DNA of 37,058 bases from Mycoplasmataceae bacterium (GTDB taxonomy: Bacteria > Bacillota_I > Bacilli_A > Mycoplasmatales > Mycoplasmoidaceae). The notes under the pieces are model-generated. The model was given only the letters and a program-made list of their open reading frames with translations, was not told where the DNA came from and did no database searches. Shown here in pieces: positions 1 through 3,776 of the stretch (the first letter of the stretch is position 1; every line of letters begins with the position of its first letter). Position numbers and translations under genes: made by a program. Location: assembly GCA_031259945.1 (NCBI GenBank), contig JAIRKU010000003.1:1-37058 (forward strand), written 5' to 3'.

Positions 1-99
1 GCTACAACTAGTTGTTAATGCAATTGGAATACTAATTCCTAATCCAACTAACATTATGGAAGAGATTCCTAATATTCTTTTTAATTTCATGTTTTTCAT
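1..99 (-). CDS. Lipoprotein, N-terminal fragment (runs off the window)
   Basis: Only the first 33 codons are inside the window. The start at 99 follows an AGGAG SD site at 106-110. The peptide opens with MKNMKLKR, followed by a hydrophobic stretch and a lipobox ending L-T-T-S-C at residues 28-32. This is a classic type II signal peptide: the Cys would be lipidated and the mature protein displayed on the cell surface. The mature domain is not visible, so the function is unknown. The upstream leader carries a (GA)11 tract and a terminator-like hairpin, both unusual for a housekeeping gene and suggestive of switched expression. Confidence 0.8.
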   Translation of the reverse strand, partial: MKNMKLKRILGISSIMLVGLGISIPIALTTSCS

Positions 100-137
100 T
101 TTTTTCTCCTTTGTGAAAACGATCAACTAGACACGAA

Positions 138-175
138 AAAAGCAAGAACTAGCAAATGCTAAATTCTTGCTTTTA
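138..175 (-). terminator. Attenuator-like hairpin in the lipoprotein leader
   Basis: Arms 141-148 and 164-171 pair perfectly (AGCAAGAA with TTCTTGCT) and the loop side pairs further (TAGCA with TGCTA). On the minus strand the hairpin is followed by a run of T at 135-140. It lies between the GA tract and the SD site of the lipoprotein gene, so it would terminate the leader transcript rather than end a gene. A 7-bp inverted repeat (GATCAAC at 121-127, GTTGATC at 234-240) encloses the whole structure. Confidence 0.55.
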
Positions 176-208
176 AGAAAAGCTAAAGCGTCAAGAGCAA
201 CTAAGTTG

Positions 209-230
209 CTCTCTCTCTCTCTCTCTCTCT
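209..230. repeat. (CT)11 / (GA)11 dinucleotide tract
   Basis: Eleven CT units read as (GA)11 on the coding strand of the lipoprotein gene that starts at 99. Short tandem tracts of this kind change length by slipped-strand mispairing and are known upstream of variable surface lipoproteins in mycoplasmas. The tract directly abuts a hairpin with arms 194-201 and 205-212. Confidence 0.85.
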
Positions 231-271
231 TGTGTTGATCATGTTTAAATTAATGTAATACTTATACAACA

Positions 272-311
272 AAAAATGTGTTTTAGAAAGGAAAAATGTG
301 TTTTAGAAAGG
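272..311. repeat. Two perfect tandem copies of a 20-bp unit
   Basis: Positions 272-291 are repeated exactly at 292-311 and followed by another GAAAA. The repeat lies in the intergenic region between the divergent lipoprotein gene and the dinJ-like gene, just upstream of a TATAAT at 318-323 on the plus strand. It may carry regulator sites or change copy number by slippage. No gene is visible in 241-418. Confidence 0.8.
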
Positions 312-418
312 AAAAGTTATAATGGGGGTTGCTTAATAGGGGTTGGAACTTAATGATTCAAATAAAAGTATTTTCTATTTAAAATACTAGAAAAATAGAA
401 TATGTAGGAGGAAGTAAT

Positions 419-595
419 ATGAAAAAAAATAAATGAACTTTAAATGAAAAAACATTGCGAGCTTTACATGAAATGGAAAGTGGCAATGGTTTGCATGTAG
501 ATTCTTTCGAAGAAATATTAGAAAGTATCGGCATTTCTCTCGTACCAGTTAAAAAATTATTCAGCAAAAACAAACATGAAAAAAATAATCTTTAG
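419..595 (+). CDS. DinJ/RelB-like antitoxin
   Basis: A 58-residue protein starts at the ATG behind a strong AGGAGG at 406-411 and contains one UGA Trp (residue 6). I call it an antitoxin mainly from context: it overlaps by 20 nt a frameshifted gene whose protein is clearly YafQ-like, and DinJ-YafQ pairs have this order and overlap. The sequence itself is divergent: a short acidic helical segment around residues 18-35 and a Lys/Asn-rich tail. It lacks a convincing ribbon-helix-helix N-terminus. It is the only gene of the two toxin-antitoxin loci that still reads through. The antitoxin family assignment is inference. Confidence 0.5.
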
Positions 596-829
596 TTCTC
601 AATTTCCGGAAGATTTGTCGACTTGTAAAAGAGAATATTTGGTTTATATGGTTTAGAAAAATTGAATCATGTGATTAGTATTTTAAAAGAAGGTCACAAA
701 CTTCAACCTAAATATAAAGATCATCCTTTGGATAAATACAAAGAACTTAAAGGTAAAGGTTTGAGAGATTGTCATATTGTTGATCGCTTTATGGCTGTCA
801 GTGATACTTTGGTCGCTAATCATATGTAG
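576..829 (+). pseudogene. YafQ-family mRNA interferase toxin, frameshifted
   Basis: The first frame starts at ATG 576 and runs 26 codons to TAG 654. The YafQ N-terminus is visible (MKKIIFSSQF, then DLSTCKRE). A shift at about 640-652 is needed to continue with GLEKLNHVISILKEG and then the family hallmark L-x-P-K-Y-K-D-H-P-L and R-D-C-H-I, as in YafQ/RelE endoribonucleases that cut mRNA in the ribosomal A site. The second frame stops at 829, before the catalytic C-terminal strand (usually G-S/T-H-x-x-L-F). The gene therefore has both a frameshift and a lost active-site end and should be inactive. Confidence 0.75.
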
Positions 830-870
830 ATTTATCTACCTCTATGATTGGCACTTTTAATTTACAAAAT

Positions 871-903
871 AAAAATAAGGTTGGTTATTCAACCTTATTT
901 TTA
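871..903 (+). terminator. Rho-independent terminator after the yafQ remnant
   Basis: Arms 873-883 and 890-900 form an 11-bp perfect stem (AAATAAGGTTG with CAACCTTATTT) around a 6-nt loop. T residues follow on the plus strand and A residues precede, so it may act in both directions. It separates the two decayed toxin-antitoxin loci. Confidence 0.8.
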
Positions 904-933
904 TTATTACCTAAGTATGCTTGTTAGAAAAGT

Positions 934-949
934 AACCAAGGTATTACTA
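934..949 (+). repeat. 16-bp direct repeat, copy 1
   Basis: AACCAAGGTATTACTA occurs here and again, identical, at 1542-1557. The two copies bracket the second toxin-antitoxin locus (about 608 bp apart) and each lies 86-123 nt before the first start codon of the operon that follows. It could be a recombination or target-site scar, or a shared regulatory site. Confidence 0.7.
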
Positions 950-979
950 CAGAACAATTTATATCACAATAAAATAGTT

Positions 980-985
980 TATAAT
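980..985 (+). promoter_or_regulatory. -10 box for the second toxin-antitoxin locus
   Basis: A consensus TATAAT lies 34 nt upstream of the antitoxin ATG at 1020, and a GGAGG SD site follows at 1007-1011. No convincing -35 box is visible, as is common in mollicutes. Confidence 0.6.
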
Positions 986-1019
986 GGAAAGCATAAAAGT
1001 TATAACGGAGGTAGAACCC

Positions 1020-1248
1020 ATGATTCATATAACTGTAACAATTAACGAAACTAAAATTACTGGTGAATTTGTAAACACAAATGAAGCTAAAAAATTTGTT
1101 AATATTGAATGTTAAAAAAGTAGAACCAAGTCAACAAAAACAGTTGAATGGTTTAGAAATTGCTTTAGAACAAGTAAAACATTTAAAAAAATCTGATTTT
1201 ATGTCTTTAGAAGAAGTAAAAGATCGTGTCAGTGAACTCCTCTTATAG
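1020..1248 (+). pseudogene. YefM-like antitoxin of a YoeB pair, frameshifted
   Basis: From ATG 1020 (GGAGG at 1007-1011) the first frame reads MIHITVTINETKITGEF... and stops at TAA 1113. A +1 shift near 1105 continues into NVKKVEPSQQKQLNG... and a helical segment with MSLEEVKDRVSELL, ending at TAG 1248. The second half alone could start at ATG 1081. Position, length and overlap with a YoeB-like toxin make it the cognate antitoxin. The sequence is not close to any antitoxin I can name with certainty, so the family label rests on the partner. Confidence 0.55.
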
Positions 1249-1505
1249 AGTTGCTACAACTCCAAGATTTGATTCCGAAATGAAGGAATGGCGTTCTCAT
1301 CATCATAGGAATAAAATACACAAAAGAATTCATATTTTAATTAATGATATATTAGCTTCACCTTTTAAAGGAATTGGAAAGCCAGAACCACTAAAAAATC
1401 AAAATGGTGTGTGAAGTAGACGAATTGACTCTGAGCATAGAATAACATATTTGGTGTCTTAAAGATACAATCATTCTATTAACTTGTCGAGGCCATTACA
1501 AATAA
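1232..1505 (+). pseudogene. YoeB/Txe-family toxin, C-terminal frameshift
   Basis: The toxin starts at GTG 1232 (or 1226), overlapping the antitoxin. It contains the YoeB hallmarks PFKGIGKPEPLK, then W-S-R-R-I-D-S-E-H-R, with the Trp encoded by TGA at 1406. YoeB/Txe toxins are ribosome-dependent mRNA endonucleases. The frame stops at TAA 1460, but the missing tail is present one frame over (DTIILLTCRGHYK, ending at 1505), including the catalytic H-Y near the C-terminus. A single indel around 1455-1460 thus removes the active-site end. Together with the antitoxin frameshift this makes the locus a decayed module. Confidence 0.8.
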
Positions 1506-1541
1506 TTTTTTATTTTTTGTGATATAAATTAACCGCAGGCA

Positions 1542-1557
1542 AACCAAGGTATTACTA
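1542..1557 (+). repeat. 16-bp direct repeat, copy 2
   Basis: Identical to 934-949. It lies between the decayed YoeB locus and the structured leader of the three-gene cassette. The flanking bases differ (ACAG against ATAG after the repeat), so the identity stops at 16 bp. Confidence 0.7.
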
Positions 1558-1560
1558 TAG

Positions 1561-1656
1561 TCATACGGAGTTATGATTTATTTTTGGTTTCTAGAAAAAG
1601 CTAGCGGTAACGTTTAGCTAATTACTAGACGACCGGACCTTGCCATGCAATGGAGG
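1561..1656 (+). promoter_or_regulatory. Structured leader of the three-gene cassette, with sequestered SD
   Basis: A nested stem-loop is visible: TCTAG (1590-1594) pairs with CTAGA (1625-1629), enclosing AGCTA (1599-1603) with TAGCT (1615-1619). A second hairpin pairs CCAT (1643-1646) with ATGG (1650-1653) and so covers the start of the GGAGG SD site (1652-1656) of the 1665 gene. A short reading frame of 14 codons begins at ATG 1573 inside the leader. The arrangement suggests RNA-level control of the operon, but I recognise no known riboswitch class. Confidence 0.4.
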
Positions 1657-1664
1657 TATTCAAT

Positions 1665-1997
1665 ATGAATACTTTAAATAATATCGAGACTTCGATAAAA
1701 AATAAGTCAACAGATAGTTTTTTGAATATGAGTAAAATCACAATATATCGTGTAAGTACAGATCATGAATGATTAAAGAAAAAATATTCTTCATTGTTTG
1801 ATGCGTTGGTGCATATCGAAGCTGAAACAGCTAATGCTGTGTTACTAGTTAATGTACTTTGAGAATCAAATCCTCAAAACGATGTGGACTATTCCTTAAA
1901 TCGTTTTGCAGACATGTTTTATCCAGGTGTACATAAGGCTTGAATCGCCAAATGTCTCATTAAGATATCAGTCTATGATGCAGAAAAAGCTAAATAA
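1665..1997 (+). CDS. Unrecognised protein of 110 aa, first gene of the cassette
   Basis: Starts at ATG behind GGAGG (1652-1656) and uses three UGA Trp codons, so it is a genuine table-4 gene. The protein is soluble, with a polar N-terminus, then alternating helices (YSSLFDALVHIEAETANAVLLV), and ends KAK. No signal peptide, membrane segment or catalytic motif is visible and I do not recognise the family. The following gene starts 15 nt downstream and the operon ends in a terminator at 2551-2602. The neighbourhood of decayed toxin-antitoxin genes and a relaxation-like protein suggests a plasmid or phage origin. Confidence 0.7.
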
Positions 1998-2011
1998 GGA
2001 GATGTGTTAAC

Positions 2012-2203
2012 ATGAACGAATCAACCAAATATATTAAATACATCGAAGAGATTAGCAAAACATTCATCAAAGAAAATTGAACATTCAATGATCTGCGTAA
2101 ATTCATGGCTTTTGCAGGTATTAAAGAAAAATGAGTTAGAGACATTATTTTCAAAAGTGTTTTACTAAAAACTACAATGCTTGAGTCTCGTGAGGAAAGG
2201 TAA
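2012..2203 (+). CDS. Unrecognised small protein of 63 aa
   Basis: Second gene of the cassette, with ATG 15 nt after the previous stop and an AGGAG at 1997-2001. It has two UGA Trp codons. The sequence is mostly helical and charged (YIKYIEEISKTFIKENW, then FAGIKEKWVRDIIFKSVLL), and a helix-turn-helix-like pattern around residues 25-45 is possible but not convincing. It has no membrane segment. Its close spacing with both neighbours implies cotranslation. It may be a small DNA-binding or adaptor protein; this is a guess from size and charge only. Confidence 0.6.
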
Positions 2204-2212
2204 TTATTAGTC

Positions 2213-2521
2213 ATGCAGTATAATAAGTGTATGAAAAAAGTAAAAATCATTGCCTCAGATCATAATCCAGTGCAAGTTGGTGATAATGCTCTTGTTGATG
2301 TTAAAACGAAAACTAAGAAACGTAAACCACATAATCCTGGTCCAAATTCAGATAATGGCGGCAAAAGACCACCTAAACCTCCAGCATGATTTGCAGGAGC
2401 CATTCAGGAAGCGTTAAATCCGTTAAGAACTGATATTCAAACGCTCAAAACTCGTTTAGATAAACAAGACGAGTTCAATCGTGAAGTTAGTCAAAGACTT
2501 ACTAATCTCGAAACTCGTTAA
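2213..2521 (+). CDS. Unrecognised coiled-coil protein with Pro/Lys-rich linker, 102 aa
   Basis: The start is either ATG 2213 (after GAGGAAAGG) or ATG 2231. The second start sits 6 nt after a perfect TATAAT at 2219-2224, so a separate leaderless transcript may begin there. The protein has three parts: a short beta-like N-terminus, a basic/Pro/Gly linker (about residues 35-60), and a C-terminal amphipathic helix from about residue 65 with heptad-like spacing (LRTDIQTLKTRLDKQ) suggesting a coiled coil. One UGA Trp. No family recognised; a structural, tethering or phage-like accessory role is possible. Confidence 0.65.
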
Positions 2522-2550
2522 TCACAATTCAAAATAAACTAGTAAACATT

Positions 2551-2602
2551 AGATCATGGGTCAAGTCCTTCGAAAAGCCTAGATCTCATGATTTTTCTTT
2601 TA
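2551..2602 (+). terminator. Terminator of the three-gene cassette
   Basis: ATCATG near 2553 pairs with CATGAT at 2587-2592, with additional pairing of GGTC and GATCT allowing one bulge. TTTTTCTTTT follows on the plus strand. It marks the end of the operon beginning at 1665. Confidence 0.65.
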
Positions 2603-2664
2603 TAACACAACCAAATTATCGTGAGCACACGATTTAAGCATCGTTAATTTTAGGAGGTATACAC

Positions 2665-2745
2665 ATGTATATCAAATCTCAAAAAAGCGAAATTAGAGGT
2701 ATTCCTGTGCGTCATTTTTTCATAAAATTTAACAAAACGGCTTAA
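2665..2745 (+). CDS. 26-aa reading frame with strong SD, probably a truncated gene
   Basis: ATG 2665 follows a very good AGGAGG (2652-2657). The frame opens MYIKSQKSEIRGIPVRHFF and ends at TAA 2743-2745, only 4 nt before the converging gene on the other strand. So strong a ribosome site in front of so short a product suggests the 5' end of a larger gene cut off at about 2740. A genuine micropeptide cannot be excluded. Confidence 0.4.
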   Translation: MYIKSQKSEIRGIPVRHFFIKFNKTA

Positions 2746-2749
2746 ATTA

Positions 2750-3529
2750 TTAGTATTTTGCTAAAGAATCGTGTAACTTTAAAATTTCTAAATGTTCAGG
2801 TATATGTCCAGTTTCAACGCAAGGTAGTAAATTTTTTCATTTGTTATAGACTGGTAGCTTTTCATTAGCATAAATCTTAACCATTTTAAAACGTTTAGCA
2901 TAGTCTCCCAAAGCAAAAAGGCTACGCAGCACTATTCGCATACGTTTCTCAGATTTAGGAGTATTCTCAACTTCAATGCAAACTCAACCTTTCATTTCTT
3001 TATTCCATACAAGTAAATCTGGTTTTCGTTCTTCGACACCAGCGTATCAGATATGTTTAATTTCTTTATAGACATCAACTCACATGTAACCAGTATCTCT
3101 AGATGATCAGTAATATCTGTTATCTACTGGTTGAGCGCCAAATTCTTTAAGTAGAGCTTTGATACATCAATCCGTATGCTCTACTTCATAAAAGTTAAAC
3201 TTAACACTATATCTTGGTACTAGCTTTACTCTATTTCCATCTGATACCTCTTTGGTAATACCCAATCTTCGTTGTGCATAGCCGGTGGCGCTATACAAAT
3301 GTTTGCTACTGAAAGGATATTTTTTATACACCACTAAATTTAATCCTTTATCATCGGATTCATAGCAACGAGCATCTAGTACCTTTAATAAATTAGCTAT
3401 TTGTCGCTCTGTTAAGTTGGTTAATTTAACCATTTGAGGTCTTGTTAAATCACCTCATCTTACTAGTGCACCTAATAGTCTTTTTATACTTTCTAATTAC
3501 AAATTGCTGTAACTATGTTTTATTTTCAT
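2750..3529 (-). pseudogene. Winged-helix plus PD-(D/E)XK-like protein (replication-relaxation type), damaged 5' end
   Basis: The open part reads from about 3478 to TAA 2752-2750. The N-terminal section looks like a winged helix: LLGALVRWGDLTRPQM, then LTERQIANLLKVLDARCY. The C-terminal section has E-R-K-P-D-L-L-V-W followed by W-V-C-I-E-V-E-N-T-P-K, the spacing of a PD-(D/E)XK nuclease core. This two-part plan resembles plasmid replication-relaxation (Replic_Relax) proteins; the match is by eye. No start codon lies between the in-frame TAA (3499-3497) and ATG 3433, which is inside the winged helix. ATG 3529 with a weak SD would be in frame but for that TAA. Five or more UGA Trp codons are used. 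Confidence 0.5.
3488..3510 (-). repeat. Solo copy of the IS30-type terminal repeat (copy 1)
   Basis: On the minus strand this reads ACAGCAATTTGTAATTAG then AAAGT, a 23-bp exact match to the outer end of the IS30-type element at 36896-36918. No transposase adjoins it. The repeat contains the TAA that interrupts the reading frame of the 2750-3529 gene. Confidence 0.75.
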
Positions 3530-3618
3530 TCCACTAATACCCTCGTGGTTGTCATTGTTGCAGTTATTTTAAATTATCATGGTTTTTATTTCGGCAAAAC
3601 AATATTAATTATTTTAAA

Positions 3619-3694
3619 TGGTGGAGTGTGAGGGGATCGAACCCCCGACCCTCTGCTTGTAAGGCAGATGCTCTCCCGGCTGAGCTAACACTCC
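3619..3694 (-). tRNA. tRNA-Val (anticodon TAC)
   Basis: On the minus strand the acceptor GGAGTGT pairs with ACACTCC, the anticodon stem TCTGC/GCAGA carries loop CTTACAA (anticodon TAC), and the T arm is GGGGG TTCGATC CCCTC. CCA is encoded. It is first from the left in a Val-Glu-Asn cluster. Confidence 0.95.
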
Positions 3695-3699
3695 GTGAA

Positions 3700-3776
3700 T
3701 GGTGACCAGTATGGGATTCAAACCCATGAATGCCGCCGTGAAAGGGCGGTGTGTTAAGTCGCTTCACCAACTGGCC
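3700..3776 (-). tRNA. tRNA-Glu (anticodon TTC)
   Basis: Acceptor GGCCAGT pairs with ACTGGTC. The anticodon stem CCGCC/GGCGG carries loop CTTTCAC, giving anticodon TTC. The T arm has TTTGAATC. Discriminator A and CCA are encoded. Confidence 0.93.

What the first reader, a model, noticed from the sequence alone, without database searches (positions are those of the whole stretch)
1561..2602. Unrecognised three-gene cassette behind a structured leader with a sequestered ribosome site
Three small genes (110, 63 and 102 residues) are compactly arranged, use UGA Trp and end at a terminator. Their leader has a nested stem-loop and a hairpin covering the SD site. The third protein combines a basic Pro-rich linker and a coiled coil and may also be made from an internal leaderless promoter (TATAAT 2219-2224, ATG 2231). 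None resembles a family I know. In an island with toxin-antitoxin remnants and a relaxation-like protein this may be a plasmid- or phage-derived defence, maintenance or regulatory system.
Basis: partly seen in the sequence, partly recalled or inferred. Interest (0 to 1): 0.65.

Follow-up and report, generated by a model that had tools for sequence, protein, structure and literature searches.

The report
Decayed ICE operon with structured leader
This is the leftover right-hand end of a mobile conjugative element in a termite-gut mycoplasma relative; its intact copies carry a conserved folded RNA leader, a copy of the host's ribosomal-RNA "keep transcribing" signal hidden in the first gene's codons, and a last gene of a family scattered in up to about twenty copies per genome, apparently made without any mRNA leader.

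Summary
In detail: three compact UGA-Trp ORFs (110, 63, 102 aa), a folded leader, a hairpin over the SD site and an internal TATAAT-N6-ATG are all present. Comparison with 35 genomes of the same genus (Mycoplasmataceae MAGs, probably termite gut) shows what they are: the tail operon (leader-g1-g2-ssb-g3) of a mycoplasma-type ICE, normally behind traG/VirD4 and a toxin-antitoxin pair. A fuller ICE copy lies elsewhere in the same genome. In the window the conjugation genes and ssb are deleted and the TA genes are broken.

Most likely the intact module is under rrn-type antitermination plus SD sequestration; the window copy is decayed. The defence/maintenance reading is not supported.

The parts
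334..858 (+). YafQ-type toxin-antitoxin remnant (frameshifted) joined to the sequence that lies behind traG in intact ICE copies
   Evidence: blastn: 334-783 is 92% identical to L049:9338-8867 and 773-858 is 89.5% to 9447-9364; intact C17 toxin hits Pfam YafQ 1.6e-17
961..1462 (+). second toxin-antitoxin remnant (YoeB type, frameshifted) between traG end and leader
   Evidence: window 773-1847 collinear with L053:1815-788; the L053 toxin hits Pfam YoeB_toxin 4e-21
1523..1543 (+). inferred promoter TATAAA (1523-1528) and conserved GCAGGCAAA at the inferred transcript start (about 1535)
   Evidence: TATAAA plus GCAGGCAAA before seven leaders, incl. two in G005 and the divergent G033; start site inferred from the 6-nt spacer rule
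1562..1575 (+). leader hairpin 1 followed by a T-rich stretch
   Evidence: present in folds of window, C17, G024, G027, G033
1586..1634 (+). nested leader stem-loop capped by a GUAA (GNRA) tetraloop at 1607-1610
   Evidence: model R1 hit 1583-1644; pair counts 95.8%, compensatory changes, GCAA loop in G033
1637..1657 (+). hairpin that sequesters the Shine-Dalgarno GGAGG (1652-1656) of g1
   Evidence: folds of six leaders all pair SD bases with a different upstream arm
1665..1997 (+). g1, 110 aa; conserved N-terminal segment plus a variable body (predicted small beta-barrel)
   Evidence: homologues in G024, G027, G006, G005 (A2); AlphaFold core pLDDT about 90
1713..1728 (+). boxA-like element inside g1 codons, two substitutions from the conserved AGTTCTTTGAAAA (decayed copy)
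2012..2203 (+). g2, 63 aa, predominantly helical by sequence, unknown family
   Evidence: homologues in G024, G006, G005 in the same place (A3)
2213..2230 (+). deletion junction: start codon and SD of the lost ssb gene fused to the g3 promoter region
   Evidence: in G024 g2 is followed by GGAGGTAATTAGTTATG = ssb start; window has GGTAATTATTAGTCATG then TATAAT
2219..2224 (+). TATAAT -10 box, 6 nt before ATG 2231: leaderless start of g3
2231..2521 (+). g3, coiled-coil protein of a multi-copy genus-wide family (ORF opens at 2213)
   Evidence: 31/36 genomes, up to 21 copies; AlphaFold: two strands plus helix 58-101
2552..2593 (+). terminator-like hairpin with T-tract that ends the unit
   Evidence: recurs behind g3 copies L002, L010, L012, L027, L030, L034, L035
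   Evidence: 74% DNA identity to L049:6887-6173; Pfam none

Best explanation
The region is the decayed tail operon of a mycoplasma-type integrative conjugative element. Shown: in relatives the order is traG - (toxin-antitoxin) - promoter - structured leader - g1 - g2 - ssb - g3 - terminator; the window has lost the conjugation genes and ssb. Inferred working of the intact operon: transcription starts at GCAGGCAAA; the leader RNA folds into a hairpin (GNRA-capped in most copies) and a second hairpin that hides the g1 Shine-Dalgarno site; while the start of the message is untranslated, a host rRNA-type boxA (AGTTCTTTGAAAA), encoded in g1 codons 17-21, is exposed 59-63 nt behind the SD and can recruit NusB/S10. 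This would make RNA polymerase processive through the operon and/or delay translation of g1-g2-ssb until conjugation. g3 is made independently as a leaderless message from TATAAT at the 3' end of ssb, which is why it can keep working when ssb or the ICE is lost and has become a dispersed gene family. In the window the boxA has two substitutions, so only the SD hairpin and the leaderless g3 start are likely still functional.
For: ICE context: VirB4 NF045975 (Mbov_0397 ICE family) 7.4e-60 and VirD4-like 8e-7, TraG-D_C and integrase, gene order. SSB: SSBs are the best PDB-profile hits (4e-4) and NCBIfam SSB 8.7e-6. Leader. boxA: nine copies with identical GATAGTTCTTTGAAA and no synonymous change while neighbouring conserved motifs vary in codons; all hits with at most one mismatch in 36 genomes are DSSLK-type ORFs or 16S leaders, reversed-pattern control 0; the exact 13-mer occurs 39 times against 8 for the reversed control, about 5 expected; of 30 read, 19 lie about 31-34 nt before 16S (own genome included), 1 in a 16S-23S spacer, 5 in DSSLK-type ORFs. 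boxA is necessary and sufficient for rrn antitermination complex formation in E. coli (PMC10250234); boxA near protein-coding genes is known to act (PMC5725501). g3 leaderless; spacing rule PMC4245973.
Against: boxA lies inside a reading frame, where ribosomes could displace Nus factors. Presence of NusB in this genus was not tested, and mollicutes generally lack Rho (own knowledge), so any target would have to be intrinsic terminators. No expression data. The G006 inner loop (AUUU) is not GNRA, and the G005 leaders fold differently. The boxA in the window itself is mutated. Only about 7 distinct leader sequences, some close relatives.
Confidence: 0.55

Rival explanations
1. The leader is a translational operator for SSB: SSB binds the leader hairpins and shuts off its own operon, as T4 gp32 does; the boxA-like codons are incidental.
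For: The leader precedes operons that encode ssb, with only a g1 remnant between in G006b; the SD is sequestered in every copy; T4 gp32 is an autogenous translational repressor acting on a structured operator (PMC535899).
Against: Does not explain the identity of the g1 codons with the 16S leader or the absence of synonymous change. In G005 the same leader also precedes a 434-aa gene without ssb directly behind it.
Confidence: 0.2
2. The conserved 15-mer is no boxA but a module boundary: leader plus first codons is exchanged by recombination between ICE copies and cargo genes, and identity reflects recent exchange.
For: Bodies of g1 differ (C17, G033, G005b) behind a shared start; g3 also shows module swapping.
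Against: The leader beside it has diverged strongly in G033 and G005 while the 15-mer is identical, and the match to the 16S leader would be coincidence.
Confidence: 0.2
3. The folded leader acts as single-stranded DNA (an ssDNA promoter like Frpo, or an oriT/ssi hairpin) that expresses ssb when the ICE enters a recipient.
For: Early genes of conjugative plasmids lie in the leading region with Frpo-type elements (PMC11541004; ssb among them is own knowledge).
Against: A conserved double-strand TATAAA promoter with constant spacing, GNRA loops and SD pairing all point to RNA; conserved pairs include G-U.
Confidence: 0.05
4. A self-standing plasmid- or phage-derived defence, maintenance or regulatory cassette.
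For: Compact small genes beside toxin-antitoxin remnants.
Against: Homologues sit in the ICE tail operon with ssb; no defence-family hit; no phage or plasmid relative found.
Confidence: 0.04

Closest known systems
Mycoplasma ICEs (ICEA of M. agalactiae, Mbov_0397-type VirB4)
   Same: VirB4 of the NF045975 family, VirD4/TraG, many small genes without known relatives (PMC6030558)
   Different: Here a tyrosine-recombinase-type integrase is nearby, whereas ICEA is ascribed to the Mutator-like superfamily; the leader, the boxA and the ssb-g3 arrangement are not described in the passages of PMC6030558 and PMC7648426 searched here
conAn (pLS20) and canT (Tn916) antitermination
   Same: Conjugative-element operon with a cis-acting structured RNA near its start, alone or with a small protein (PMC8955417, PMC11658703)
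   Different: Here the signal looks like the host's own rRNA boxA and lies in the first codons; sequence relation not tested; it precedes an ssb operon, not the main transfer operon
rrn boxA and the E. coli suhB BoxA
   Same: Same 13-mer as the host 16S leader; suhB shows boxA control of a protein-coding gene (PMC5725501)
   Different: suhB boxA is 6 nt from the SD, in the 5' UTR; here it is 59-63 nt downstream of the SD, in the reading frame
T4 gene 32 translational operator
   Same: Structured operator before the gene of an ssDNA-binding protein (PMC535899)
   Different: SSB is third in the operon here, and no binding data exist
M. pneumoniae DUF16 / RepMP1 family
   Same: Multi-copy repeat family with DUF16 coiled-coil proteins in a reduced genome (PMC3472980); three g3 members hit DUF16 weakly (best 6.5e-5, below cut-off)
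   Different: The hit covers only the linker and coiled coil; the g3 N-terminal domain and leaderless start are its own

Membership tests
Mycoplasma-type ICE (tail operon) | VirB4 and VirD4/TraG ATPases beside the module in an intact copy | tested here: met
   C17 copy: NF045975 7.4e-60 and TraG-D_C 3.7e-9; same order in G024 and G027
Mycoplasma-type ICE (tail operon) | conjugation genes present in the window itself | tested here: not met
   No traG/virB4 piece remains; only flanking pieces align. The window is a remnant, not an ICE
Structured cis-regulatory RNA family | compensatory base changes above shuffles and slid controls | tested here: met
   (0/500 on pairing, 1/500 on covariation score); few sequences, partly related, alignment fitted to the structure
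Known Rfam family | match at gathering score | tested here: not met
   only a tRNA at gathering level in window 1-3700
rrn-type boxA element | sequence identity with the host 16S-leader boxA | tested here: met
   13-mer identical in intact copies incl. C17 versus the own-genome 16S leader; the window copy has 2 substitutions
rrn-type boxA element | NusB/S10 binding and antitermination | not testable with these tools
   needs binding and reporter assays; NusB presence in the genus not searched
SSB (gene lost in the window) | OB-fold SSB profile match | tested here: inconclusive
   best profile hits in PDB are SSBs (4e-4), NCBIfam 8.7e-6, Pfam below cut-off
conAn bipartite antitermination | ConAn1 protein plus conAn2 RNA at the start of the transfer operon | tested here: not met
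   module lies behind traG, not before the transfer operon; homology of g1 to ConAn1 not tested
Leaderless gene | TATAAT about 6 nt before the start codon, conserved in homologues | tested here: met
   28/43 versus 25/332; transcript start itself not measured
DUF16 (PF01519) | score above Pfam cut-off | tested here: not met
   23.8 bits against 40, outside the N-terminal domain
Anti-phage defence system | PADLOC family match | tested here: not met
   no credible match

The most novel reading that the evidence does not exclude
A mollicute ICE borrows its host's ribosomal-RNA antitermination signal by writing boxA into the codons of the first gene behind a conserved SD-sequestering RNA leader, and its last gene has become a small leaderless gene cassette (ssb 3' tail with promoter, g3, terminator) that spreads through host chromosomes on its own.
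Probability: 0.35. Interest if true: 0.75.

Novelty: new variant of a known kind. Interest (0 to 1): 0.6.

Why it matters
If the boxA reading is right, a mobile element uses the rRNA elongation machinery of its host for its own operon, with the signal constrained inside coding sequence; that is directly testable by synonymous recoding. It would add a further kind of antitermination in conjugative elements besides conAn and canT. The g3 family is a case of single genes leaving an ICE and multiplying in reduced genomes, each with its own leaderless promoter.

Tried and rejected
Pfam, NCBIfam, PHROG and PADLOC searches of the trio gave nothing above chance or coiled-coil level. Fold search of the g1 model gave only weak SH3-like resemblances, best E 0.18 viral and 1.2 PDB. 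IMG/VR scans with g1 and g3 found no viral relative; tblastn of the g1 homologue in plasmids and of g3 in phages was empty. DUF16 and XhlA hits of some g3 members were rejected as coiled-coil similarity. A Clr5 domain hit of one g2 homologue (22.6 bits, cut-off 22.3) was not trusted: one member only, 24 residues. Divergent hits of model R2 with E 0.08-2 were treated as noise. The 20-mer search also hit other coding places at two mismatches. An idea that the 5' GCAGGC pairs with the SD-hairpin arm as an antisequestor was dropped: it is not kept in G006 or G033. The match of window 80-255 to L050 was first read as an ICE left end, then as a shared (CT)n lipoprotein-gene leader.

Full report
1. 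The observation. Under genetic code 4 the three ORFs are as described: g1 1665-1997, g2 2012-2203, g3 2213-2521. The leader folds into a nested stem-loop and an SD hairpin. The region ends at a hairpin followed by T's.

2. Relatives. The window is contig C22 of an 848-kb assembly. Named records with homologues are 'Mycoplasmataceae bacterium' MAGs; the isolate codes suggest a termite-gut survey, which is inference from own knowledge. Homologues of g1 and g2 occur only in G024, G027, G006, G005 and the own genome; g3 is genus-wide (31 of 36). None of g1, g2 or g3 was found in the genomes of other genera of the order that were searched.

3. Context. In the own genome, C17 carries a fuller ICE: integrase, a convergent conserved gene, an RHH-like protein, g3, ssb, a g1 variant, leader, YafQ toxin, traG, an AAA protein, virB4. 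In G024 the order traG - g1 - g2 - ssb - g3 is complete; G005 has g1 - g2 - ssb - g3. In G027 a YoeB toxin sits between traG and the leader. The window aligns piecewise to these: TA remnant, traG-downstream piece, second TA remnant, leader, g1, g2, g3 and the convergent gene, beside tRNA-Val, -Glu, -Asn. So the island is an ICE remnant. ssb has been removed from about its second codon to beyond its stop, leaving its SD and ATG fused to g3; the same fused form occurs at G027:C8. The remaining ORFs are still open; g1 and g3 of the window show dN below dS against relatives, but with a higher ratio for g1 (about 0.5) than between intact copies (0.32).

4. The leader. Model R1 finds it in front of g1-type genes in window, C17, G024, G027, twice in G006, and divergently in G033 (with R2, of which G033 is itself a part, 50 bits). 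On the model-fitted alignment 95.8% of cells pair; no shuffle of 500 reaches this; slid versions give 24.6-41.1%. Compensatory changes include G-C to A-U in the inner stem, and the loop changes from GUAA to GCAA in G033; G006 has a non-GNRA loop. The SD hairpin is made by a different arm in each leader type. Upstream, TATAAA and GCAGGCAAA with near-constant spacing mark a promoter and probable start in seven leaders; G005 carries two such leaders, which fold differently, one of them in front of a short DSSLK ORF and a 434-aa gene.

5. The boxA. Across nine copies codons for DSSLK read GAT AGT TCT TTG AAA without any synonymous change, in front of bodies that differ; C17 differs at one base outside the 13-base core. 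Elsewhere in g1 conserved residues use varying codons. The 13-mer AGTTCTTTGAAAA is the conserved element about 31-34 nt before 16S rRNA in this genus, own genome included, and occurs once in a 16S-23S spacer. It occurs 39 times in 36 genomes, about 5 expected by composition, 8 for the reversed control; of 30 read, 25 are rRNA leaders/spacer or DSSLK-type ORFs. I read it as boxA, the NusB/S10 site that is necessary and sufficient for rrn antitermination complexes in E. coli (PMC10250234). The distance from SD to boxA is 59-63 nt in five copies. The window copy, 1713-1728, has two substitutions in the core.

6. g3. The family has a short N-terminal beta segment, a Pro-rich linker and a coiled coil. 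Copies lie singly among housekeeping genes, for example behind rpsB in the own genome, where G027, G024 and G006 have none. In about eleven dispersed copies the shared sequence starts at the same point, AAGCTTTGCTTAAT within the last codons of ssb, and several share the same terminator. So the dispersed unit is promoter-bearing ssb tail, g3, terminator. Whether it moves or is what remains of decayed ICEs is open. C-terminal ends (YMKSHP, NNLK, LTNLETR) are swapped among copies.

7. Mechanism. The combination - SD hidden, boxA behind it, several small genes and ssb - fits an operon that is transcribed processively with the help of host Nus factors while translation of its first gene is held back, and that supplies SSB when conjugation makes single strands. 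Shown: order, conservation, structure, identity of the element. Inferred: Nus binding, antitermination, timing. SSB autoregulation after T4 gp32 (PMC535899) is the main rival and could coexist.

8. Novelty. Mycoplasma ICEs, antitermination in conjugative elements (PMC8955417, PMC11658703), boxA control of protein genes (PMC5725501) and leaderless mollicute genes (PMC4245973) are known kinds. New here, as far as the libraries and papers searched show: this leader family, a host rRNA boxA embedded in the first codons of an ICE operon, and the g3 family. Hence 'new variant of a known kind'. The window copy itself is a decayed example.

Noticed in passing
L049:8288-8593, L063:1582-1911, L054:330-450: The first gene behind the leader keeps its N-terminal ~25 codons (DSSLK) but has different bodies in C17, G033 and G005: a cargo-swapping position.
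   Followed up: partly
L004, L005, L010, L011, L025, L028, L030, L034, L036, L110: Dispersed g3 units share a sharp left edge (AAGCTTTGCTTAAT) inside the ssb 3' end and often the same terminator; possibly a mobile single-gene cassette.
   Followed up: partly
window 206-230; L050:13750-13800: (CT)n tract upstream of a lipoprotein-like gene start, shared with a relative; looks like a phase-variation tract.
   Followed up: no
L007, L008, L119, G000:C15:34184-34257: The same ssb-tail promoter also stands in front of a different N-terminal domain (KKVVRKVEFASFNLKK), so promoter and coding modules are shuffled.
   Followed up: no
L054:448-2422: Behind a second copy of the leader in G005 lie a 434-aa protein and a 222-aa protein resembling class II glutamine amidotransferases by eye.
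   Followed up: no
L218 around 1500 (minus strand): The boxA 13-mer also occurs in a 16S-23S rRNA spacer.
   Followed up: yes
L050:2700-2790: At the end of traG lies another nested stem-loop of similar architecture (TTAGC...GCTAA inside GAGTGT...ACACTC).
   Followed up: no
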